Origin: Alloalcanivorax marinus
GTDB lineage: Bacteria > Pseudomonadota > Gammaproteobacteria > Pseudomonadales > Alcanivoracaceae
Assembly (NCBI RefSeq): GCF_016906305.1
Contig: NZ_JADDOL010000023.1
Coordinates: 1 to 59,102 of the forward strand
Direction: 5' to 3'
Length of the DNA: 59,102 nt
Part shown: in pieces, positions 35,225 through 47,052 of the stretch
How positions within the stretch are numbered: position 1 is the stretch's first letter
Layout of the letters: the number at the start of each line of letters is the position of its first letter
The notes under the pieces: model-generated
Seen by the model: only the letters and a program-made list of their open reading frames with translations
Databases searched by the model: none
What the model was told of the DNA's origin: nothing
Made by a program: the position numbers and the translations under genes

Positions 35225-37052
<1,828 letters not shown>

Positions 37053-37075
37053 AAACCGACTGGGGAGACGGACCC

Positions 37076-38038
37076 GTGTCCTTTTCACTCTACGAAGACC
37101 TTGGCCACGACATCACCCGCATCGACACCGCCATGCTCCGCGAGGAACTGGCGGCCTGCTACCTGCTGCGCGGCGGCGACGAGTTCGCCATTATCGAGAC
37201 CGGCACCCACCACACGGTGCCGATCATTCTCGACCTGCTGGCGGAGCGGCGCATCGACCGGCGGCAGGTCAAGTATGTGATCCCCACCCATGTGCACCTG
37301 GACCACGCCGGCGGCGTGGGCGGACTGATGGCGGCGCTGCCCGAGGCGACCTTGCTGGTGCACCCGCGCGGGGCGCGGCACATGATCGAGCCGGCGAAGC
37401 TGGTGGCGGGCGCCACCGCCGTGTACGGCGAGGCGGCGTTCCGCGAAACCTATGGCGAGATCCTGCCCGTGCCGGCGTCCCGGGTGCGCACCCCCGGGGA
37501 CGGCGACGAGGTGAAGGTGGGGGATCGCCGGCTGGTGTTCCTGGATACGCCGGGCCACGCCAGGCACCATTTCTGCGTGTACGATCCGGCTTCCGCCGGG
37601 GTCTTCACCGGCGATACCTTCGGGCTCTCCTATCCACCGCTGACCACGGAGAAAGGCCCGTTCATTTTGCCCACCACCACGCCGGTACAGTTTGACCCGC
37701 CGGCGCTGCAGGCCTCCATCGGCAAACTGATGGCGCTGAATGCGGAACGCATGTATCTCACTCACTACGGCCCGGTGGGCAATCCCGGCACCCTGGGCGA
37801 ACGCCTGCGCGGCCAGGTGGACGACTACGTGGATCTGGCCGAGCGGGTGGCGGGCGAGGTTGGGGATGACGAGCTGGAGGCGGCCCTGCGCACCGCCCTG
37901 CGCGACTACCTGTTCCGCCAGGTGCGCGAGCACGGCGTCCGGATGGACGACGACCGGCTCGACGCGGTGCTGGGCATGGACCTGACGCTCAACAGCCAGG
38001 GGCTGGCGGTGTGGTTGCGCTCCCGGCGTGCGGCCTGA
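37076..38038 (+). CDS. MBL-fold metallohydrolase
   Basis: 320 residues with the zinc motif THVHLDH (71-77), a later TPGHARHHF and FTGDTFG, and a helical C-terminal region of about 75 residues (RGQVDDYVDLAERVAGEVGDDELEAALR). This resembles the glyoxalase-II-like MBL subgroup; the substrate may be a thioester or ester. Start is GTG 37076 with GGGAGA 8 bases upstream. Convergent with the TRAP large-subunit gene, 12 bp apart. Confidence 0.88.
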   Translation: MSFSLYEDLGHDITRIDTAMLREELAACYLLRGGDEFAIIETGTHHTVPIILDLLAERRIDRRQVKYVIPTHVHLDHAGGVGGLMAALPEATLLVHPRGARHMIEPAKLVAGATAVYGEAAFRETYGEILPVPASRVRTPGDGDEVKVGDRRLVFLDTPGHARHHFCVYDPASAGVFTGDTFGLSYPPLTTEKGPFILPTTTPVQFDPPALQASIGKLMALNAERMYLTHYGPVGNPGTLGERLRGQVDDYVDLAERVAGEVGDDELEAALRTALRDYLFRQVREHGVRMDDDRLDAVLGMDLTLNSQGLAVWLRSRRAA

Positions 38039-38050
38039 GCCGCGCGCCGA

Positions 38051-39358
38051 TCAGCCCAGCACGCGGGGCAGGAAAAGAATGATGTCCGGAAACGCCATCA
38101 GCACCGCCAGCACCAGAATGTCCATCACCAGGAACCAGAGCACGCCCTTGAAGATGGCGCCGGTGGCGACCAGATCGCCGACCACGCTTTTGATCACGAA
38201 GATGTTCATGCCGATGGGTGGCGTCACCATGCCGATCTCCAGCAGTTTGGTGAGCACCACCCCGAACCAGATCAGGCTGAGATCGACGCTGTCGATGATC
38301 GGCAGCACGATGGGCAGTGTCAGCAGCATGGCGCCAATGGGCTCCAGGAACATGCCCAGCAGCAGATAGATCAGCACGATGATCAGCAGTATCGCCAGGG
38401 TGCTGGCGCCGGCGTCGATCACCATCGACGACAGGAAATCGCCGGCGCCGGACAGCGACAGGAAGCGGGTCAGCAGGCTGGCGCCCATGGCGATGATCAG
38501 CAAGGTGCCGGTGGTGAGCAGGGTTTCCAGCACCGCGTCGCGGAAGCGGCCCCAGGTGAGTGTGCGTTTGCACAGCGCCACCACGCAGGCCAGGGCAGCG
38601 CCCACGGCGCCCGCTTCGGTGGGCGTGAACAGCCCGGCGAACAGACCGCCAAAGATGCCGACCATGATCGCCACCACCGGCCACACTTCCCACAGAGCTT
38701 TCCATTTCTCGGCGCGGTCGATGTGCTCCGTGGTGGAGGGCGCCAGGGCCGGATTCAGTTTCACCCGGGTCACCACCACGATGATGTAACCGAGCACCGT
38801 GATCAGGCCGGCGGCGATGCCGCCCAGGAACAGCTTGGTGATCGACTCCTGGGCGATGATGCCGTACAGAATCATGATGATCGACGGCGGCAGCAGCGCC
38901 CCGACCGTACCGGCAATGGCCACGGTGCTGGTGGCGAGACCGGGCTGGTAACGGTGCTCGATCATCTCCGGCACGGCTACCCGGCCCATGGCGGCGGAGC
39001 AGGCCACCGACGAACCGCACACCGCGGCGAAGCCGGTGGTGCCGAAAATGGACGCCACCGCCAGCCCGCCGGGAATACGGGTCAGCCACAGGCGCGCCGC
39101 CCGGAACAGGCCCTGGGTCAACTGTGCGTGGTAGCACACGTAGCCGAGCAACAAGAACATGGGCACCGAGCTCAGCACCCAGTTGGCGGAGAACTGATAG
39201 GGAATCAGACCCAGGGACCCCCAGGCGATGCCCCAGCCCATCATGTACCAGAGGCCGGCGAAGGAGACGCCGATCAGTGCCAGGGCCACCGGCAAACGCA
39301 GGGCGATCAACACGAACAGCACCGCCAGCCCGGACAGGCCGATTTGAACGTCACTCAC
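38051..39358 (-). CDS. TRAP transporter large permease DctM-type
   Basis: 435 residues, twelve or so hydrophobic helices in two halves, typical DctM segments such as ASIFGTTGFAAVCGSSVACSAAMGRVAVPEM and TPPIGMNIFVIKSV. Sodium-coupled carrier of the tripartite system. GTG start at 39358 overlaps the dctQ stop by 8 bp. Last gene of the leftward mevalonate cluster; together with dctP and dctQ it should import a carboxylic acid. Confidence 0.94.
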   Translation of the reverse strand: MSDVQIGLSGLAVLFVLIALRLPVALALIGVSFAGLWYMMGWGIAWGSLGLIPYQFSANWVLSSVPMFLLLGYVCYHAQLTQGLFRAARLWLTRIPGGLAVASIFGTTGFAAVCGSSVACSAAMGRVAVPEMIEHRYQPGLATSTVAIAGTVGALLPPSIIMILYGIIAQESITKLFLGGIAAGLITVLGYIIVVVTRVKLNPALAPSTTEHIDRAEKWKALWEVWPVVAIMVGIFGGLFAGLFTPTEAGAVGAALACVVALCKRTLTWGRFRDAVLETLLTTGTLLIIAMGASLLTRFLSLSGAGDFLSSMVIDAGASTLAILLIIVLIYLLLGMFLEPIGAMLLTLPIVLPIIDSVDLSLIWFGVVLTKLLEIGMVTPPIGMNIFVIKSVVGDLVATGAIFKGVLWFLVMDILVLAVLMAFPDIILFLPRVLG

Positions 39359-39929
39359 GGGGCGCGCCCTCCCCGCTGGCCTGGGGGCGCACGTCCGCCT
39401 CGCGGCGGCGCTCTTCGTCGCTGACACGCAGCCCGCTGCGGGCGCCGGTCAGATACACCAGGAATTTATAGGCCAGCACCAGCACCATCAGGCCCAGGCC
39501 AAGCGGCAGCATAAAGTAGCCCGGCCAGGTGATGATGGTGGTACCCCCTTCCACCAGGGCGGCGCCGCTTTGGTATTTGGTGACGGCTTCGTCCCAGGTC
39601 TTGACGGTCATGAAGCCGACCACGATGGCGCTCACCGGCAGCAGCCAGTGCGCCAGATGGCGCTGCAGCTTATCGGGCAGGCGCTCCACCACCACTTCCA
39701 CGCTGACATGGGCATCCAGCTTTTCCGCGTAGGCCAGCGGCACGAAGGCGGCGATCACCATGTAGTAGTTGGACACATAGGTGATGGTGCCGGGAGGCGG
39801 TGACGAAAACAGAAAGCGCAGCACCACATCGGCGGTGATGTGCAGCATCATCAGCGCGATGGCAAGCCCGCCGATCAGGGTGGTGAAATCCGTCAGGCCC
39901 GAAAGCCAACGTCCTAGCCGGTACATCAT
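39351..39929 (-). CDS. TRAP transporter small permease DctQ-type
   Basis: 192 residues with four hydrophobic helices and the family pattern ITADVVLRFLF and AYAEKLDAHVSVEVVVERLP. The C-terminal 30 residues are charged and cytoplasmic. ATG 39929 follows GGGAGA. Coupled to dctM. Confidence 0.92.
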   Translation of the reverse strand: MMYRLGRWLSGLTDFTTLIGGLAIALMMLHITADVVLRFLFSSPPPGTITYVSNYYMVIAAFVPLAYAEKLDAHVSVEVVVERLPDKLQRHLAHWLLPVSAIVVGFMTVKTWDEAVTKYQSGAALVEGGTTIITWPGYFMLPLGLGLMVLVLAYKFLVYLTGARSGLRVSDEERRREADVRPQASGEGAPRE

Positions 39930-39957
39930 GTTTTCTCCCGCATGCCCACGGGCCGGT

Positions 39958-40368
39958 TCAGGCGCGCGCCTGGAAGCGCACCCGGGCGGTGGCCACGGTG
40001 GTGGTTTTATCGTTCTGATTGTTCAGCGTCAGGCTGAGGGTGGCGCCCTGTTCATCGCACTCGGTGACCTGGCCGGCGCCGGTCAGCACGTCGCCGAGAT
40101 AGGCGGCCAGCCGGTTGCTGTAGGTAAACGAGGCCAGCACGCCATGCTCGCCGAGCCACTCCTCCACCATCTGTGTCAGCCAGTCGCCTTGCAAAGGGCC
40201 GTCGATCAGCAATTGTGGATGACCCTCGGCTTGCTGCGTGTAGGGCAGATCGTAATGAATGCGGTGCGGATTCCAGATCGCCGCGTTATAAAGAAAAAGC
40301 TGCACGCTGTCCGCTTCGAAGCGGCGCGTTTCCAGAGTGTCGCCAATGGCGATCGAAAGTCTGGACAT
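39958..40368 (-). CDS. MaoC/HTD2-type hotdog hydratase subunit (C-terminal-type half)
   Basis: 136-residue single hotdog protein. The active-site segment AAIWNPHRIHYDLPYT is the HTD2/mesaconyl-C4-CoA hydratase version (NxHRIHYD), followed by LLIDGPLQGDWL. These enzymes hydrate an acyl-CoA double bond or dehydrate a 3-hydroxyacyl-CoA. It is 5 bp from the next subunit gene, so the two probably form a heterodimer equivalent to a double-hotdog protein. In this operon the natural substrate could be 3-methylglutaconyl-CoA/HMG-CoA (inference). Confidence 0.85.
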   Translation of the reverse strand: MSRLSIAIGDTLETRRFEADSVQLFLYNAAIWNPHRIHYDLPYTQQAEGHPQLLIDGPLQGDWLTQMVEEWLGEHGVLASFTYSNRLAAYLGDVLTGAGQVTECDEQGATLSLTLNNQNDKTTTVATARVRFQARA

Positions 40369-40373
40369 GGCGG

Positions 40374-40829
40374 TTACCTCGCGATCCGGGTGAGATATTC
40401 GGTGACCACGGGTTCGCCGTCCCGGGTTTCGAAACGGTTTTCGAACACCATGAAAATCAGCGGTCCGGAGCCGCCTTGCTTTTCGTAAAGATCCGACAGC
40501 TTTTGCCGGCAGACCAGCACCTGGCCGGGCAGGATCCGGCCGTGAACGCGGTATTCGCTGCCGCCGGCCATGATGCGTTTCAATGGCAGCTCGGGAATCA
40601 GCGGGCTGTCCGGCTGGCGCCCGTCCGGCAGCAGCTCGGACAACGGAATCACCGGCATCATGGCGCTGAACAGGAACAACAATGGCGCCTCGTCACCGTT
40701 CAGATAGCGCTGCTGGCGCTGGCCGGTGGCCACTGCGTACTTACGGATGTCGTTGCGGCTGATCTCGAACTCGAACGGCGCCACCTCGGTGCCGATCAGC
40801 GCGCGCAGCTCGTCGGTCAGAATGCTCAT
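40374..40829 (-). CDS. FAS1-like dehydratase N-terminal-type hotdog subunit
   Basis: 151 residues matching the MaoC_dehydrat_N (PF13452) pattern: EFEISRNDIRKYAVATGQ, MAGGSEYRVHGRILPGQVLVCRQKLSDLYEKQGG and LIFMVFENRFETRDGEPV. This half usually contributes the substrate tunnel, the partner subunit the active-site His/Asp. ATG 40829 was chosen; the ribosome site is weak. The gene lies beyond an internal terminator after dctP. Confidence 0.83.
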   Translation of the reverse strand: MSILTDELRALIGTEVAPFEFEISRNDIRKYAVATGQRQQRYLNGDEAPLLFLFSAMMPVIPLSELLPDGRQPDSPLIPELPLKRIMAGGSEYRVHGRILPGQVLVCRQKLSDLYEKQGGSGPLIFMVFENRFETRDGEPVVTEYLTRIAR

Positions 40830-40872
40830 GTCTTTATCGCCATAACGGTGGCCGCCACGGGTTGCGGGCCAC

Positions 40873-40903
40873 AAAAAAGGGCGCGGCGAAAGGGGGCCGC
40901 GCC
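40873..40903 (-). terminator. Intra-cluster terminator after the TRAP binding-protein gene
   Basis: GGCGCGGC-N8-GCCGCGCC stem (40880-40903) followed on the minus strand by six T (40873-40878). It lies 7 bp beyond the dctP stop and before four genes of the same strand, so it likely attenuates rather than ends the transcript. Confidence 0.85.
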
Positions 40904-40909
40904 GTACTC

Positions 40910-42061
40910 TTAAAGACCGTGCTGGCTGACGTCCACTTTGGAGAAAATCTCCTGCCAGTAGAGGCCGGCCAGCGCTTCTTCGCTGTTCACGTCCTGGACC
41001 AGGCCGGTCCACTTTTCCAGCAGCGCGCGGAATTCCTTGATCAGGGCCTCGCCGTTCTCGACGCCATAGCGCGCTTTGTAATCCTCGGCGATATGTTGCA
41101 TGTCCTGTTCGATAAAGGCACGGTTCTTCTCGATCAGCGCCGCGTCGGCATGGTGGATTTTGACGCCACGCTCCTCGGCCTCGGACAGAATGCGATCTTC
41201 ATGCTGGTGGTAGATCCAGGGCACACCGGCGGAGAACACGCTGGCGGCGCGCAGCATCACGGTGCGCTGTTCCTCGGACAGATCCTTCCAGGTATCGGCG
41301 TTGATATTGGTGCCGGCGATCGGCATCGGGCCGCCGGGTACGTCCATGTTGATGTCGGTAACCACATCGGTGAGGCCGAAGTTATGGATTTCCGGTGATG
41401 CCAGCACGATGCAGGACACCACGCCCTGGCTCAGGGCCTCGAACATTTCGTTGGCGGACATGGTCACCGGCGAGGCGCCCACCGCCTCCGCCCAGCGTGA
41501 CCAGTTGGCCGCGCCGACGCGCAGGCGCATGCCTTTCAGGTCCGCTTCGGTTTCCACCGGTTTATTGCACACCAGACCGTAGGAGGTGCCGCCGGTGCTG
41601 CCGGTGTACACCTGGTTCTGCTTCTTGAACTCCTGGTTGCACTCCGGGCATTTGAAGAAGGTGAACTCGGAAAGCGCGCCCATGAAGATCATGCCCTCCC
41701 GGCCGCGTGCTTTTTCACCCAGCAGGCCCACCAGCATGGAGGCTTCCACCGCCACGTTGCTGTGCGGAAATTCGGACGGGAAATAGGAGGTCAGCACGAA
41801 ACCGATGTCGGCCATGCCGTCGCGCACGCCGCCGGAGGTTTCCGCGAAGTTCAGCAGTGACATGGGAAAGACACGCACCTTGAGATCACCGTCCGACTGT
41901 TCCTCGACGGTCTCGGCGTACTGCTTGGCCACATCGACCACGAAGGAACTGGGCGGATGACCGATGGCGTAGCGCAGGGTGCGCGCGTCGGCGGCGCCGC
42001 TCAGGGTGCCGAACAGGACGGTGCAGACCAGCGCCAGGCTGGCGAAATGTTTACCGTTCAT
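40910..42061 (-). CDS. TRAP transporter substrate-binding protein DctP-type
   Basis: 383-residue periplasmic receptor with a signal peptide ending near ADA (residue 26). The carboxylate-binding Arg motif is LKGMRLRV (Arg181), so the ligand is an organic acid. Unusual for the family: a CPEC pair (Cys138, Cys141) plus Cys165 and Cys217, which could form a disulfide or bind metal. ATG 42061 follows AAGG. Position inside mvaA-mvaB-CoA-transferase genes points to mevalonate or a related hydroxy/dicarboxylic acid as ligand. Confidence 0.92.
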   Translation of the reverse strand: MNGKHFASLALVCTVLFGTLSGAADARTLRYAIGHPPSSFVVDVAKQYAETVEEQSDGDLKVRVFPMSLLNFAETSGGVRDGMADIGFVLTSYFPSEFPHSNVAVEASMLVGLLGEKARGREGMIFMGALSEFTFFKCPECNQEFKKQNQVYTGSTGGTSYGLVCNKPVETEADLKGMRLRVGAANWSRWAEAVGASPVTMSANEMFEALSQGVVSCIVLASPEIHNFGLTDVVTDINMDVPGGPMPIAGTNINADTWKDLSEEQRTVMLRAASVFSAGVPWIYHQHEDRILSEAEERGVKIHHADAALIEKNRAFIEQDMQHIAEDYKARYGVENGEALIKEFRALLEKWTGLVQDVNSEEALAGLYWQEIFSKVDVSQHGL

Positions 42062-42111
42062 AGCGATACCTTATTTTGTTGTTTAATGGTTTCTTGCTCA
42101 GGGGCGCGGCG

Positions 42112-43341
42112 TTACACCACACCGTCCCGCCGCAGTGCTTCCAACTCTTGCTCGGAGCGGCCCAGCCAGCCCTGGTACACCGCCTGGTTGGACTCGCCCA
42201 CCATGGGTGCGCGGGCGCCCTGCTCGTTGGTGCCGCCGGACATCTTTACCGGGTTGCCGAACACCTCGAAGCGGGCGCCGCGGTAGTCCACCGGGATCAC
42301 CATGTTGCGCTCGCGCACATGGGGATCCTCGACCACCTCGTCGATGGTCTTGATCGGCGAAAGCGGGAATCGGGACCCGGTCATCTCTTCCAGCTCCGCC
42401 TTGGTGTAGGCGGCGCACCAGCGCTCCACCACCGGATGCACGCGGCGCTGGTACACCTCGTGGTCGAAACGCTTGGCCATGGTGTCGATTTCGGGGTCGC
42501 TGATCAGGGCTTCGTCGCCGAACACCAGGCAGGCTTCGCGCCAGAATTTGTCCGTGTAGGCGCCGAAGAACACGTAGCCGTCCTTGCAGGCGAAGCGGCC
42601 GTAGGGTTTGACGAACGGATGGCCGTTGCCTTCCGGCACCGCCACCTTGCCGGTGGCGGTGTAGTTGACCAGGGCGTTCTCGGTCAGCGAAATGATCGAG
42701 TCCTGCTGGGAAATATCCACGTGCTGGCCCTGCCCGCCGCGCTCCGCCTCGCGCAAGGCGCCCAGGGTGCCGATGGCGCCGTACAGCGCGGCGCTCAGAT
42801 CGCCGAGCACCGTGCCCACGCGCATCGGCTCTTCCACGGTGCCGTTCATGGACCAGAGCCCGCCGGACGCCTGGGCGCTGCTGTCGAAAGCGGGGCGCGG
42901 CGCGTTGGGTCCGTTTTGCCCGAAGCCGCTGATCGAGGTCATCACGATGGCCGGGTTGGTGGCCTTGAGTACCTCATAACCCAGGTCCAGTTTGTCCATG
43001 GTGCCGGGCCGGAAATTCTCCAGAACGATGTGCGCCTTGCCCACCATTTCCAGGAACAGGTCGCGGCCGGCGGCCGCTTTCAGGTCGAGGCTGATCGCCA
43101 TCTTGTTTCTGTTGTATTGCGCGAAGAAGCCGCTGATGGCTTCTTCGCTTCCGCCGAGGGCCGGAGGAAAAGCGCGGGTCAGGTCCGGGTCGCGAGGATG
43201 CTCGATCTTGATCACGGTGGCGCCCATGTCGGCCAGCAGCATGGCGCAGTACGGGCCGGCGACGACGCGCGTCAGGTCCAGAACGATAACGTCCTTGAGC
43301 GCGCCCTTGGGGGGCAGGGGCAGACCGGTGTTTTCGATCAT
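42112..43341 (-). CDS. CaiB/BaiF family (class III) CoA-transferase
   Basis: 409 residues with the family start VIVLDLTRVVAGPYCAMLLADMGATVIKIEHP, SLDLKAAAGRDLFLEMV, ENFRPG, and the catalytic Asp in AFDSSAQASGG (about Asp153). Moves CoA between two carboxylic acids. Human SUGCT, also class III, uses 3-hydroxy-3-methylglutarate as acceptor, so succinyl-CoA to HMG-CoA transfer is a reasonable guess here. ATG 43341 overlaps the mvaB stop (ATGA) and follows GGAGGAGAG. Confidence 0.92.
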   Translation of the reverse strand: MIENTGLPLPPKGALKDVIVLDLTRVVAGPYCAMLLADMGATVIKIEHPRDPDLTRAFPPALGGSEEAISGFFAQYNRNKMAISLDLKAAAGRDLFLEMVGKAHIVLENFRPGTMDKLDLGYEVLKATNPAIVMTSISGFGQNGPNAPRPAFDSSAQASGGLWSMNGTVEEPMRVGTVLGDLSAALYGAIGTLGALREAERGGQGQHVDISQQDSIISLTENALVNYTATGKVAVPEGNGHPFVKPYGRFACKDGYVFFGAYTDKFWREACLVFGDEALISDPEIDTMAKRFDHEVYQRRVHPVVERWCAAYTKAELEEMTGSRFPLSPIKTIDEVVEDPHVRERNMVIPVDYRGARFEVFGNPVKMSGGTNEQGARAPMVGESNQAVYQGWLGRSEQELEALRRDGVV

Positions 43342-44258
43342 CTCTCCTCCGGATTTTTTGTCGTATTGTTGGCGCGCTGGGCGCGGGCCACCCGGGATTG
43401 GGTGGCGCGACCCAGGTGCTGGTCCACGAAGCCGCCGGCGGCCACCAGCCGGTCCAGGTCCACGCCGGTGTCCAGGCCGAGGCCTTCGAACAGGTACACC
43501 AGCTCCTCGCTGGCCACGTTGCCGGTGGCGCCGGGCGAGTAGGGGCAGCCGCCCAGGCCGGACACCGAGCTGTCGAACACGCGCACGCCTTGTTCCAGGG
43601 CGGTCAGACAGTTGGCCACCGCCATGCCCCGGGTGTCATGAAAGTGCACCGCCAGCCGTTGCACCGGTATGTCCGTGGCGCAGGCGGTCAGCAGCGATTT
43701 CACCGCCGACGGCACGCCGGCGCCGATGGTGTCGCCCAGGCTGATTTCATGGCAGCCCAGCCGCGCCAGCGCCGAGGCGGTACGCACCACCTGGGCCACC
43801 GGCACCGCGCCGTCGTACGGGCAGCCGAGCACGCAGGATACATAACCCCGCACCGGCACACCGTGCTCGCGGGCCTGCGCCAGCACCGGTTCGAAGCGGG
43901 CCAGGCTGTCGGCGATGGAGCAATTGATATTGCGTTGGTTGAACGTTTCCGAGGCGGCGGTGAACACCGCCACCTCATCGGCGCCGGCGGCCAGCGCCGC
44001 GCTCATGCCGCGCTCGTTGGGCACCAGCACGCTGTAGGTCAGATCCGGCCGCTTCGGTAGCCGCGCCAGCACCTCGTCGGTGCTGGCCATTTGCGGCACC
44101 CAGCGCGGCGATACGAAGGCGCCGGCCTCGATATGCCGCAGCCCCGCCTCGACCAGACGCCCGATCAGCTCGGCGCGCACCGCCGGTGTCAGCGTGCGGG
44201 CTTCGTTCTGCAGCCCGTCGCGGGCGCCGACCTCCACCAGCCGGACCGCCTCGCTCAT
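43338..44258 (-). CDS. mvaB: Hydroxymethylglutaryl-CoA lyase MvaB
   Basis: 306-residue TIM-barrel lyase splitting HMG-CoA into acetyl-CoA and acetoacetate. Signature parts: [12 protein letters not shown] (8-19, metal and catalytic Asp14), [18 protein letters not shown] with metal-ligand His205 and His207, and the active-site loop [14 protein letters not shown] with Cys238, matching the essential Cys237 of Pseudomonas mevalonii. Overlaps both neighbours by 4 bp. Confidence 0.96.
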
Positions 44259-45541
44259 TGCTCGCGCAACGCTTTCAGCAGGGCTTCCGCGCGGTCCGCG
44301 CGCACGTCGTGGTTCTCCACCATTTGCCGCACCAGCTGATCCACCTCGGCGCCCCGGGCGCCGGCGGACAGCGCGATATTGCGGGCATGCAGCGCCATAT
44401 GACCGCGCTGAATGCCCTCGGTGGCGAGCGCGCGCAGGGCGCCCAGGTTCTGCGCCAGGCCCACCGCCACGGCGATCTCCGACAGCTCCTGGGAGGTCTT
44501 CACGCCCAGCAGCCGCAGGGACAATTGCGCCAGCGGATGGGTCTTGGTGGCGCCGCCCACCAGGCCCACCGGCATCGGCATCTCGATGGTGCCCACCAGG
44601 TGGCCGCGGGCGTCCTTCTCCCAGGTGGTCAGCGAGCCGTAATGGCCCTTGCGGCAGGCCCAGGCGTGGGCGCCGGCTTCCACCGCCCGCCAGTCGTTGC
44701 CGGTGGCGACGATCAGCGGATCGATGCCGTTCATGATGCCCTTATTGTGCGTGGCCGCGCGGTACGGATCGATGGCGGCGAACGTGTAGGCGTCGATGAT
44801 ACGGTCGATCACGTCCGCGCCACCAAAGGCATCTGTTTCAAAGTGTTCGGGAGCGATGGACACCTGGGCGCGGGCCAGCCGCAGGTCGGCCAGGTTGGAC
44901 AGAATACGCAGGCGCACCTTGCCGCCGGTGATCTCCTCCATCAGCGGTGCCACCGCTTCGGCCATGGTGTTAACGGTGTTGGCGCCCATCGCGTCGCGCA
45001 CGTCCACCACCAGGTGGGCCACCACCATGGGGCCGCGCGGGCTGTCGGTGAACAGATGCACCTCCAGGTCACGGCAGCCGCCACCCAGCTTGTTGAGCAG
45101 GGCGTCCTTGCTGTTCGCCAGCTCGATGATGCGCTGGCGATGGCGCAGCAGGCTCAGGCGGGCGTGGGCCGGATCGTCCAGGCCGATGATCTGAATCTGC
45201 GCGCGCATCAAGGGCGCGCTGCTGGAGGTCAGGAAGCCGCCCGCGGGGCGCGCCAGTTTGGCCATGTAGGACGCCGCCGCCACCACCGAGGGCTCTTCCA
45301 CCGCCATCGGCACCACCACCTCGCGACCGTTGATCATAAAGTTGCCGGCCAGCCCCAGGGGCAGCTCGAACTTGCCGATCACGTTCTCGATCATGCCGTC
45401 GGCGATTTCCATGGGCAGCGCGCCCTGGTCGCGCAGCAGGGCGGTGTCCTTCTCGCTCAGCCCGAACTGTCGGCGCAGCACCTCCAGGCGCTCGGACGGA
45501 GAAAGATTGCGGAAACCGGGGAGTTGGGAACTGGCAGTCAC
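44255..45541 (-). CDS. mvaA: Degradative (class II) HMG-CoA reductase MvaA
   Basis: 428 residues, the same length as the Pseudomonas mevalonii enzyme that oxidises mevalonate plus CoA to HMG-CoA. The catalytic residues fall at identical numbers: Glu83 (in VEEPS), Lys267 (THNKG), Asp283 (GND) and His381 (LHARNIA region). Dinucleotide motif [10 protein letters not shown] (183-192) and Asp146, which favours NAD over NADP, are present. The substrate loop [12 protein letters not shown] is intact. Start is GTG 45541 with AAGGGG 7 bases upstream. First gene of the leftward cluster, divergent from a MocR regulator. Confidence 0.96.
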
Positions 45542-45617
45542 TGAAGACCCCTTCTGGGCAGCGTTGTTGTTAGAGGGCGCGTGTGATCGCGCCGGTTTCG
45601 ATCTAACATATCGGCGC

Positions 45618-45640
45618 CTGTACCCATGAAAAAGGTACAG
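45618..45640. promoter_or_regulatory. Candidate MocR operator between mvaA and the regulator
   Basis: CTGTACC-N9-GGTACAG, a perfect 7-bp inverted repeat centred in the 134-bp region between the divergent mvaA and MocR genes, 36-58 bp upstream of the regulator start. The match to the adjacent regulator is inferred from position. Confidence 0.6.
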
Positions 45641-45675
45641 TTAGCACAAACAGTGGGGCGGACCAAAAGGACATC

Positions 45676-47052
45676 GTGACGATGCGGAGAATCACCCTGA
45701 CACAACGGATCGCGTCCGATATCGCGGGACAGATTGCCGAGGGTATCCTCCGCGAAGGGGACAAGCTGCCGTCTCTGCGGGAGTACATGCGGCTGCACGG
45801 TTACTCCAAGAACACCGTGATCACCGCCTACGAATACCTGGCCGCCGAGGGTCTGGTGGAGGCCCGCCACGGACGTGGCTTTTTCGTGCGCGCGGTGCCC
45901 GCCGCCGGCGACGGAGACCAGACGCCGCCGCCCTATGCCCGGGCTCTGGACACCATCTGGATGATGCGGCAGCAACTGGTGCGGGAGCCGGGGCACTCCC
46001 ATCTGGGCGAAGGCTTTCCGCCGGTGGATTGGCTGATGGACATGCGTCTGGACAAGTTTCATCGCCAGGTGGTGCGCGGTGGCGTCACTACCCTGTTCCG
46101 TTACGGCAACCGCTACGGCAACGCCAGCCTGCGCGAGCAACTGGTGAAAAAGCTGGCCGGCTACGGCATCAACGCCGGCCCCGGCCAGATGCTGACCACC
46201 TTCGGCGCCAACCACGGCATGGACCTGATCATCCGTCGCTTCGTCAAACCCGGCGACCCGGTGCTGGTGGAAAGCCCCGGCTATTACCCCCTGTTCGGCA
46301 AGCTGCAGCTGCACGGCGCGCGCATGCTGCCGGTGCCCCGTCGCATTGATGGCCCGGACCTGAACGCGCTGCAACGCTGGCTGGAACGGGAAAAGCCGGC
46401 CCTGTTCTTCATGCAATCGGTGGGGCACAACCCCACCGGCACCGACCTGTCCGAGGAAAAGGCCCGGCGCATTCTGGAACTGGCGGAGAAGCACAAACTG
46501 CTGGTGGTGGAAAACGACGCCATGGCCGACTTCAAGCTCAACACCTGCACCCGGCTGTCCACCCTGGACCAGTTCCGTCGCACCCTCTACGTGGGCAGCT
46601 TTTCAAAGCCGATCTCCGCGGCCCTGCGGGTGGGTTTTCTGGCCGGTGACGAAGGCCTGATCAGCGAGCTGGCGGACGTGAAAATGCTGCTGCACATCGG
46701 CGGCACCGAATACGCCGAACGCACCGTGGACGTGATTCTTCGGGAGGGGAATTATCTGCGCCATCTGTCCCGGCTGCAGGAAAAACTGCGCGCCGCCACC
46801 GTCACCGGCCTGCGCGTGCTCGACGAACTGGGCGCCGACGTCTTCCACCGCCCCGAGCAGAGCCTCTATCTCTGGGCTCGCTTCCCCGGCATCGGCGACG
46901 CCAACGACCTGACCCGCCGCTGCCTGGAACGGGGCGTCATGCTCGCCCCGGGTTCGATCTTCTCGGTGGACCGCCGCGACCGGGTGCCCTGGACCCGGCT
47001 CAACGTGGCCTATCTGGACGACCCGGCATTCCGCGCCAGCTTGCGGACCTGA
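45676..47052 (+). CDS. MocR-type regulator (GntR domain fused to PLP aminotransferase-like domain)
   Basis: 458 residues. Residues 4-75 are a GntR winged helix (LTQRIASDIAGQIAEGILREGDKLPSLREY ... SKNTVITAYEYL). The rest is a fold-type I aminotransferase domain with the PLP-binding Lys311 in GSFSKPISAALRVG and the Asn of GHNPTGTDLS. MocR proteins use PLP plus an amine/aldehyde effector. Start GTG 45676 (AAGG 5 bases upstream) or ATG 45682. Divergent from mvaA, so it is the probable regulator of the mevalonate cluster. Its 3' end overlaps the convergent LuxR-hydrolase gene by 43 bp. Confidence 0.9.
   Translation: MTMRRITLTQRIASDIAGQIAEGILREGDKLPSLREYMRLHGYSKNTVITAYEYLAAEGLVEARHGRGFFVRAVPAAGDGDQTPPPYARALDTIWMMRQQLVREPGHSHLGEGFPPVDWLMDMRLDKFHRQVVRGGVTTLFRYGNRYGNASLREQLVKKLAGYGINAGPGQMLTTFGANHGMDLIIRRFVKPGDPVLVESPGYYPLFGKLQLHGARMLPVPRRIDGPDLNALQRWLEREKPALFFMQSVGHNPTGTDLSEEKARRILELAEKHKLLVVENDAMADFKLNTCTRLSTLDQFRRTLYVGSFSKPISAALRVGFLAGDEGLISELADVKMLLHIGGTEYAERTVDVILREGNYLRHLSRLQEKLRAATVTGLRVLDELGADVFHRPEQSLYLWARFPGIGDANDLTRRCLERGVMLAPGSIFSVDRRDRVPWTRLNVAYLDDPAFRASLRT

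What the first reader, a model, noticed from the sequence alone, without database searches (positions are those of the whole stretch)
38051..47052. Mevalonate/HMG catabolic cluster with CoA-transferase, split hydratase and TRAP uptake
mvaA and mvaB match the Pseudomonas mevalonii enzymes residue for residue at the catalytic sites. But the cluster adds a class III CoA-transferase, two half-size hotdog hydratase subunits, a full TRAP system and a MocR regulator. I propose that mevalonate, 3-hydroxy-3-methylglutarate (via CoA transfer) and 3-methylglutaconate (via CoA transfer and hydration) all converge on HMG-CoA. I do not know of a described cluster with exactly this content.
Basis: partly seen in the sequence, partly recalled or inferred. 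Interest (0 to 1): 0.85.

Follow-up and report, generated by a model that had tools for sequence, protein, structure and literature searches.

The report
Mevalonate-eating operon with CoA-transfer module
This bacterium carries a gene cluster for eating mevalonate, with an extra enzyme pair that probably turns a related unsaturated acid, perhaps one found in fungal iron-carriers, into the same food.

Summary
The cluster is real and at the stated coordinates: a minus-strand operon mvaA-mvaB-CoA-transferase-DctP-hdA-hdB-DctQ-DctM with a divergent MocR gene, in an Alloalcanivorax-like genome. Mevalonate catabolism by mvaA and mvaB is well supported. hdA and hdB resemble the separated N and C halves of itaconyl-CoA hydratase.

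New here: the CoA-transferase and the hydratase form one module. All 30 loci seen with this transferase (about 28 genomes) have mvaA within 3.3 kb and one downstream hydratase, hdA-hdB (14) or an unrelated crotonase (16). Ten of the 30 were found with mvaA as bait; with the transferase itself as bait, 11 of 11 genomes show the same. mvaB is nearby in 13 of 30. One switch of hydratase type suffices on the trees.

The module therefore probably hydrates an unsaturated acid with recycling of CoA, as itaconate CoA-transferase plus hydratase do. Its constant partner is mvaA. No substrate is shown.

The parts
44255..45541 (-). mvaA, degradative class II HMG-CoA reductase (mevalonate + CoA + 2 NAD+ -> HMG-CoA)
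43338..44258 (-). mvaB, HMG-CoA lyase
42112..43341 (-). coaT, class III CoA-transferase; Asp181, at the class III catalytic position (recalled), is invariant in 14 of 14 aligned
40910..42061 (-). DctP, TRAP solute-binding protein
40880..40903 (-). terminator-like hairpin between dctP and hdA; would raise DctP over the distal genes (inference)
   Evidence: 8 such sites found in the region, 4.6 expected; this one has 8 G-C pairs
40374..40829 (-). hdA, like the N-terminal half of itaconyl-CoA hydratase (two-hotdog hydratase)
39958..40368 (-). hdB, like the C-terminal half of the same hydratase, with NPHRIHYD motif
39351..39929 (-). DctQ, TRAP small permease
38051..39427 (-). DctM, TRAP large permease
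45676..47052 (+). MocR-type regulator (GntR + aminotransferase-like domain), divergent from mvaA
   Evidence: a homologue (33% identity or more) lies divergently within 1 kb of mvaA in 37 of 80 named mvaA loci
45618..45640 (.). palindrome CTGTACC-N9-GGTACAG between mocR and mvaA; probable operator (inference)

Best explanation
A mevalonate catabolic operon with an accessory feeder module. TRAP uptake brings in mevalonate-type acids, MvaA oxidises mevalonate to HMG-CoA, and MvaB (or another lyase of the genome) splits it to acetyl-CoA and acetoacetate. The class III CoA-transferase puts CoA on an alpha,beta-unsaturated C6 acid. The hydratase (hdA-hdB here, a crotonase elsewhere) adds water at C3, and the transferase hands the CoA from the hydroxy product to the next unsaturated acid. 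I commit to anhydromevalonate (5-hydroxy-3-methylpent-2-enoate) as the main substrate, giving free mevalonate for MvaA; this is the reverse of fungal SidI/SidH. Shown by sequence: families, gene order, linkage, and replacement of one hydratase type by the other. Inferred: every reaction, the CoA cycle and the substrate.
For: mvaA and mvaB identity. In 30 of 30 loci with the transferase (50% identity or more; 112 stretches scanned) mvaA is within 3.3 kb and one hydratase lies downstream on the same strand, hdAB 14 and crotonase 16, none with both. Baits: hdA 10 loci, mvaA 10, transferase 9, the window 1. With the transferase as bait, 11 of 11 genomes found show mvaA and a hydratase (searches; contexts 53, 67, 112). 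Of 72 named mvaA loci without the transferase, none has hdA or hdB at 30% identity or more, nor the crotonase at 45% (two, L074 and L077, have a crotonase at 30% or more). One switch of hydratase type suffices in the transferase and mvaA trees. hdA and hdB match the two halves of itaconyl-CoA hydratase (107 for hdA). For the P. aeruginosa itaconate enzymes, CoA transfer from citramalyl-CoA to itaconate, making conversion independent of the starting succinyl-CoA, is reported (PMC12290011, passages). Anhydromevalonyl is the acyl group of fusarinine C, TAFC and coprogen, made from mevalonate by SidI and SidH (PMC10500206, passages). A leucine-type gene group with its own crotonase is elsewhere in the genome. 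One locus (L185) has a double FecCD permease gene nearby.
Against: No substrate is shown. hdA's nearest solved relative and the transferase's nearest NCBIfam equivalogs (mesaconate, glutarate) act on dicarboxylates, which favours the HMG/3-methylglutaconate route. mvaA presence is by construction in the 10 mvaA-bait loci, and the transferase bait was itself built from mvaA-linked genes with a strict cut-off (1e-130), so more distant uses would be missed. mvaB is no rarer with the module (13 of 30) than without it (18 of 72). HMG-CoA lyase is common (51 of 57 relatives), so a missing local mvaB says little. The FecCD neighbour occurs at 1 of 30 module loci, runs convergently, and may be chance. 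SidH ranks only 40th among PDB matches of the crotonase profile. No link of Alloalcanivorax to fungi is known to me.
Confidence: 0.4

Rival explanations
1. One reading: the transferase activates 3-hydroxy-3-methylglutarate and 3-methylglutaconate, and hdA-hdB hydrates 3-methylglutaconyl-CoA to HMG-CoA, so all substrates meet at HMG-CoA and are split by MvaB.
For: hdAB resembles itaconyl-CoA hydratase, which makes a beta-hydroxy-beta-methyl dicarboxylyl-CoA one carbon shorter. The transferase profile matches human succinate-hydroxymethylglutarate CoA-transferase 9BR6 (253 bits). Growth of a bacterium on HMG is reported for Snodgrassella alvi (PMC11343714, passages). In the window mvaB is in the operon, and methylglutaconyl also occurs as a siderophore acyl group (PMC10500206, passages).
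Against: The module's constant partner is mvaA (30 of 30), with mvaB in 13 of 30. It was not found without mvaA in the 11 transferase-bait genomes. A leucine-type gene group with its own crotonase is in the genome.
Confidence: 0.32
2. The transferase and hydratase act on an unrelated C5 dicarboxylate such as itaconate or mesaconate, and sit in the operon for shared uptake or regulation only.
For: Closest NCBIfam model of the transferase is succinyl-CoA:mesaconate CoA-transferase (315 of 700 bits); hdAB resembles itaconyl-CoA hydratase.
Against: Far below that family's cut-off. mvaA linkage holds across several proteobacterial families. No CitE-type citramalyl-CoA lyase among the 10 window proteins scanned.
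Confidence: 0.08
3. The module acts on some other 3-hydroxy or 2,3-unsaturated acid of mevalonate or isoprenoid chemistry not considered here, or on mevalonate itself, for example interconverting its enantiomers through the dehydrated CoA ester.
For: Linkage shows only that substrate or product concerns MvaA or its regulator.
Against: No specific support.
Confidence: 0.2

Closest known systems
Pseudomonas mevalonii mevalonate catabolism (mvaA-mvaB)
   Same: Degradative HMG-CoA reductase aligned without gaps to 1QAX, followed by HMG-CoA lyase; growth on mevalonate is reported for P. mevalonii (PMC7503714 passage). The mvaAB operon of P. mevalonii is recalled.
   Different: Adds a class III CoA-transferase, a split hydratase, a TRAP system and a divergent MocR gene. 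Whether P. mevalonii has any of these was not tested here.
Itaconate degradation (Ict-Ich-Ccl) of Pseudomonas aeruginosa
   Same: CoA-transferase, hydratase and lyase logic (PMC12290011, passages); hdA and hdB match the two halves of Ich.
   Different: Hydratase split in two genes; lyase is HMG-CoA lyase; linked to HMG-CoA reductase. The transferase was not compared with Ict itself.
SUGCT, succinate-hydroxymethylglutarate CoA-transferase (human)
   Same: Class III CoA-transferase (profile of 14 transferases against 9BR6: 253 bits).
   Different: YfdE, 10UH and 4ED9 score higher; substrate not tested.
SidI/SidH of Aspergillus (mevalonate to anhydromevalonyl-CoA)
   Same: Same proposed intermediates, reverse direction; the crotonase variant belongs to the same superfamily as SidH.
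   Different: SidI is called a ligase, not a transferase (PMC10500206, passages); SidH is only the 40th match of the crotonase profile; hdAB is of another fold family.
CaiB/CaiD carnitine system
   Same: Class III CoA-transferase and crotonase cycling CoA between unsaturated and hydroxy acid (recalled).
   Different: Distant transferase (137 bits against 1XK6), different substrate.

Membership tests
Mevalonate catabolic operon (mvaAB type) | Degradative class II HMG-CoA reductase | tested here: met
   TIGR00532 425.7 bits over cut-off 260; 1QAX alignment
Mevalonate catabolic operon (mvaAB type) | HMG-CoA lyase in the same operon | tested here: met
   NF004283 430.8 bits over 246; 4-base overlap with mvaA
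Mevalonate catabolic operon (mvaAB type) | Growth on mevalonate | not testable with these tools
   needs culture
Itaconyl-CoA hydratase (Ich) | Two hotdog halves of Ich type | tested here: met
   A4 profile 30.9 bits to 8HUC residues 11-128; A3 profile 55 bits to 8HUC residues 168-212. Foldseek: hdA finds 8KHG first; hdB finds ChsH1-ChsH2 and R-hydratases first and Ich is not among the 50 rows shown
Itaconyl-CoA hydratase (Ich) | Single fused chain (as in 8HUC/8KHG, 275 residues) | tested here: not met
   two separate genes 5 bases apart
Itaconyl-CoA hydratase (Ich) | Neighbouring citramalyl-CoA lyase | tested here: not met
   the lyase in the operon is HMG-CoA lyase
Succinyl-CoA:mesaconate CoA-transferase (NF041294) | Curated score cut-off 700 | tested here: not met
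   315.2 bits
Succinate--glutarate CoA-transferase (NF052585) | Curated score cut-off 750 | tested here: not met
   234.4 bits
Class III CoA-transferase (PF02515) | Family match and conserved Asp | tested here: met
   383.8 bits; Asp181 invariant in 14 of 14 and aligned with Asp in the solved relatives printed; that this Asp is catalytic is recalled
TRAP transporter | DctP, DctQ and DctM together | tested here: met
TRAP transporter | Ligand mevalonate, HMG or anhydromevalonate | not testable with these tools
   best solved relative 4P56, 79.7 bits, too distant to infer a ligand

The most novel reading that the evidence does not exclude
A bacterial pathway for anhydromevalonate, the acyl group of fungal hydroxamate siderophores: a self-priming CoA-transferase/hydratase pair hydrates it to mevalonate, which enters catabolism through MvaA. 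The two unrelated hydratases (crotonase and split hotdog) may serve the trans and cis isomers, since the two superfamilies usually attack opposite faces (recalled) while MvaA needs one mevalonate enantiomer (recalled).
Probability: 0.37. Interest if true: 0.72.

Novelty: new variant of a known kind. Interest (0 to 1): 0.52.

Why it matters
Bacterial mevalonate catabolism has been worked out in few organisms (recalled), and a CoA-transferase/hydratase module tied to it was not met in the searches made here. If the module feeds on anhydromevalonate or 3-methylglutaconate, it would give siderophore-derived or host-derived acids a defined metabolic fate. The choice of one of two unrelated hydratases beside the same transferase is a natural case of enzyme replacement, and it makes the substrate question directly testable with two small sets of proteins.

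Tried and rejected
Stereo-inversion idea (transferase moving CoA between the two arms of HMG): chemically possible but gives no reason for the mvaA tie; dropped. DoeB and metallo-beta-lactamase-fold neighbours (36039-38038, plus strand) as part of the pathway: the first meets the ectoine DoeB equivalog (466 bits, cut-off 403) and both converge on the operon; set aside. Siderophore uptake as a general neighbour: the L185 FecCD permease has no second match in 109 stretches, which include all 30 module loci; kept as a lead only. hdAB homologues without mvaA (L031, L032, L033) sit among genes that look like acyl-CoA dehydrogenases, a ligase and thiolases (named by eye, no family scan), so hdAB alone does not mark the pathway. 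One within-genus search (25 genomes of an unnamed genus that I took to be Pseudomonas) found no transferase; the tool notes that an empty answer without a positive control shows nothing. The class-wide search (369 genomes) found only the window's own genome. Outgroup rooting of the transferase tree failed: the outgroup row had a branch of length 10. In that tree the G014/G028 transferases group with L097 and not beside the hdAB group, unlike in the mvaA tree. Paper searches gave no direct precedent (listings and abstract starts seen, showing 20 of 49, showing 15 of 35), on SUGCT structures, gave nothing used.

Full report
OBSERVATION. The window is one whole contig (G000:C16) of a 4.05 Mb genome. 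Same-genus genome G006 carries the same DNA as L099, a locus of Alloalcanivorax balearicus (4 kb identical), so the host is Alloalcanivorax-like (inference). The eight minus-strand genes and the divergent MocR gene are present as described. mvaA passes the degradative HMG-CoA reductase equivalog, aligns without gaps to 1QAX, and keeps Glu83, Lys267, Asp283 and His381. mvaB passes the HMG-CoA lyase subfamily. The transferase is class III but far below the cut-off of every NCBIfam equivalog listed (best 315 of 700 bits).

THE SPLIT HYDRATASE. hdA (151 aa, likely start 40829) matches FAS1_DH_region. hdB has no Pfam match at 1e-3. Profiles of 11 and 12 relatives match the N half (residues 11-128, 30.9 bits) and the C half (residues 168-212, 55 bits) of itaconyl-CoA hydratase 8HUC/8KHG. 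The predicted models are hotdog-like. hdA (pLDDT 86) finds 8KHG first. hdB (pLDDT 81.5; the segment 33-37, inside the NPHRIHYD motif, is below 50) finds ChsH1-ChsH2 and an R-hydratase first, and Ich is not among the 50 rows shown. So hdA-hdB is a split two-hotdog hydratase, nearest to Ich by sequence, substrate unknown.

CONSERVATION AND LINKAGE. Of 57 relatives searched, 13 have a strong mvaA match (E below 1e-190). Eleven of these have hdA at E below 1e-70, and all eleven have coaT, hdA and hdB together (for ten relatives; the window for G000). The other two (G014, G028) have mocR, mvaA and coaT without hdAB or this TRAP system, and a crotonase after coaT. A scan of named genomes with the mvaA alignment gave 80 loci (the 80 best of 588 confirmed, itself a capped list); 8 of the 80 carry the transferase. 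With the transferase as bait, seven searches (398, 369, 249, 25, 289, 18 and 12 genomes; 1,360 look-ups with repeats; the last two aimed at families already known to hold it) found it at E below 1e-130 in 11 genomes, two of them the window's own genus. It is rare: 5 of 398 genomes in the phylum-wide draw.

In a tally of 112 stretches, 30 carry the transferase at 50% identity or more. L096/L184 and L028/L099 are the same DNA, so about 28 genomes are distinct. Ten of the 30 came by hdA bait, ten by mvaA bait, nine by transferase bait, one is the window. All 30 have mvaA within 3.3 kb (by construction for the mvaA-bait ten). Fourteen have hdA and hdB (40% identity or more), 16 have the crotonase (45% or more), none has both. 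Thirteen have mvaB (45% or more) within the stretch, one of them 7.8 kb off on the other strand. Of 72 named mvaA loci without the transferase, which include archaeal and Chloroflexi genes and some short contigs, none has hdA or hdB even at 30%, and none the crotonase at 45%; two (L074, L077) have a crotonase at 30% or more; 18 have mvaB. mvaB is thus no rarer with the module than without it. Both crotonase glutamates of the usual active site are invariant in 15 of 15 (their role is recalled).

REPLACEMENT. The trees of the transferase and of mvaA each need one change between hydratase types (100% and 88% of 200 bootstrap trees), but the separating branch is not strongly supported (92/50 and 87/86). 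In the midpoint-rooted mvaA tree the hdAB group is nested among crotonase types (starred branch 99/98 joining it to G014 and G028), so the crotonase may be the older partner. The transferase tree does not show this: there G014 and G028 group with L097 (97/90), and its outgroup was too distant to root it.

MECHANISM. A class III CoA-transferase fixed beside a hydratase suggests hydration of an unsaturated acid with recycling of CoA. The itaconate enzymes of P. [quoted passage not shown] The product should matter to mvaA, the constant partner. If it were HMG-CoA, presence with mvaB and without mvaA would be expected at least sometimes; in the 11 bait genomes it was not seen, though bait and cut-off favour mvaA-linked copies. 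The own genome also has an acyl-CoA dehydrogenase, carboxyltransferase and crotonase group that looks like leucine or isovalerate degradation (L209; best NCBIfam match of the crotonase is gamma-carboxygeranoyl-CoA hydratase, below cut-off). A crotonase homologue lies beside such a carboxyltransferase in 5 of 5 genomes checked. A second 3-methylglutaconyl-CoA hydratase would then be partly redundant. Anhydromevalonate removes the difficulty: its hydration gives mevalonate. It is the acyl group of fusarinine C, TAFC and coprogen, made from mevalonate through SidI and SidH (PMC10500206, passages). Methylglutaconyl also occurs in fungal siderophores (same passages), so both readings have a natural source. 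At L185 a double-length FecCD permease gene, followed by genes that by eye look like a binding protein, an ATPase, an esterase and an outer-membrane receptor, lies next to mvaA-coaT-crotonase-mvaB. Only the FecCD protein was family-tested, and it is the only such case.

TRANSPORT AND CONTROL. The uptake system is interchangeable: this TRAP in Alloalcanivorax and G025; a TctA-like protein with a small partner in L071 and L072; a sugar-type ABC system whose permease is fused to a strictosidine-synthase/SMP-30-like domain in L067, L068, L105 and L186; a lone-looking Peripla_BP_6 protein in others. The fused domain could be a lactonase for mevalonolactone (speculation). A mocR homologue stands divergently within 1 kb of mvaA in 37 of 80 named loci. 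The mocR-mvaA gap holds a palindrome CTGTACC-N9-GGTACAG at 45618-45640. A 14-mer from it occurs in 35 of 229 loci, which are overlapping loci of 11 genomes of the window's family plus five Pseudomonas and one Cupriavidus locus; it was not found at the other mvaA loci. The pattern was read from the same alignment, so only its single place in the window and its spread are informative.

VERDICT. Mevalonate catabolism: about 0.9. Transferase plus hydratase acting as one hydration module: about 0.75. Anhydromevalonate as substrate: about 0.4. HMG/3-methylglutaconate: about 0.32. On recheck I moved these last two slightly (from 0.42 and 0.30), because mvaB proved no rarer with the module than without it. 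No enzyme activity has been shown. Paper searches (listings and abstract starts) met no description of the module, in a library that lacks most subscription papers.

Noticed in passing
L185:12274-19271: Convergent with mvaA-coaT-crotonase-mvaB: a double-length FecCD permease (Pfam), then genes that by eye resemble a binding protein, ATPase, esterase and TonB-type receptor. Possible siderophore uptake beside the module.
   Followed up: partly
L067:14368-16491, L186:13516-15633: ABC permease (BPD_transp_2) fused to a strictosidine-synthase/SMP-30-like domain next to mvaA; possibly a transporter with a built-in lactonase.
   Followed up: partly
window 41639-41650 (in DctP): A CxxC motif (CPEC or CSEC) in the solute-binding protein is kept in the window and all 10 relatives aligned; unexplained.
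   Followed up: partly
window 36039-38038: DoeB-type deacetylase (ectoine) and a metallo-beta-lactamase-fold protein converge on the operon; the DoeB homologue lies beside mocR instead in L027, L028 and L029.
   Followed up: partly
L202:9267-11450: The own genome has another pair, a class III CoA-transferase-like gene next to an HMG-CoA-lyase-like gene (lyase also matched), beside two large oxidoreductase-like genes (named by eye); substrate unknown.
   Followed up: no
L185:5690-7642, also L127, L139, L192, L193, L200: A regulator with GAF and PucR-type HTH domains (tested in L185) lies beside mvaA, with no mocR match in the stretch in five of these six loci; L192 has both.
   Followed up: partly
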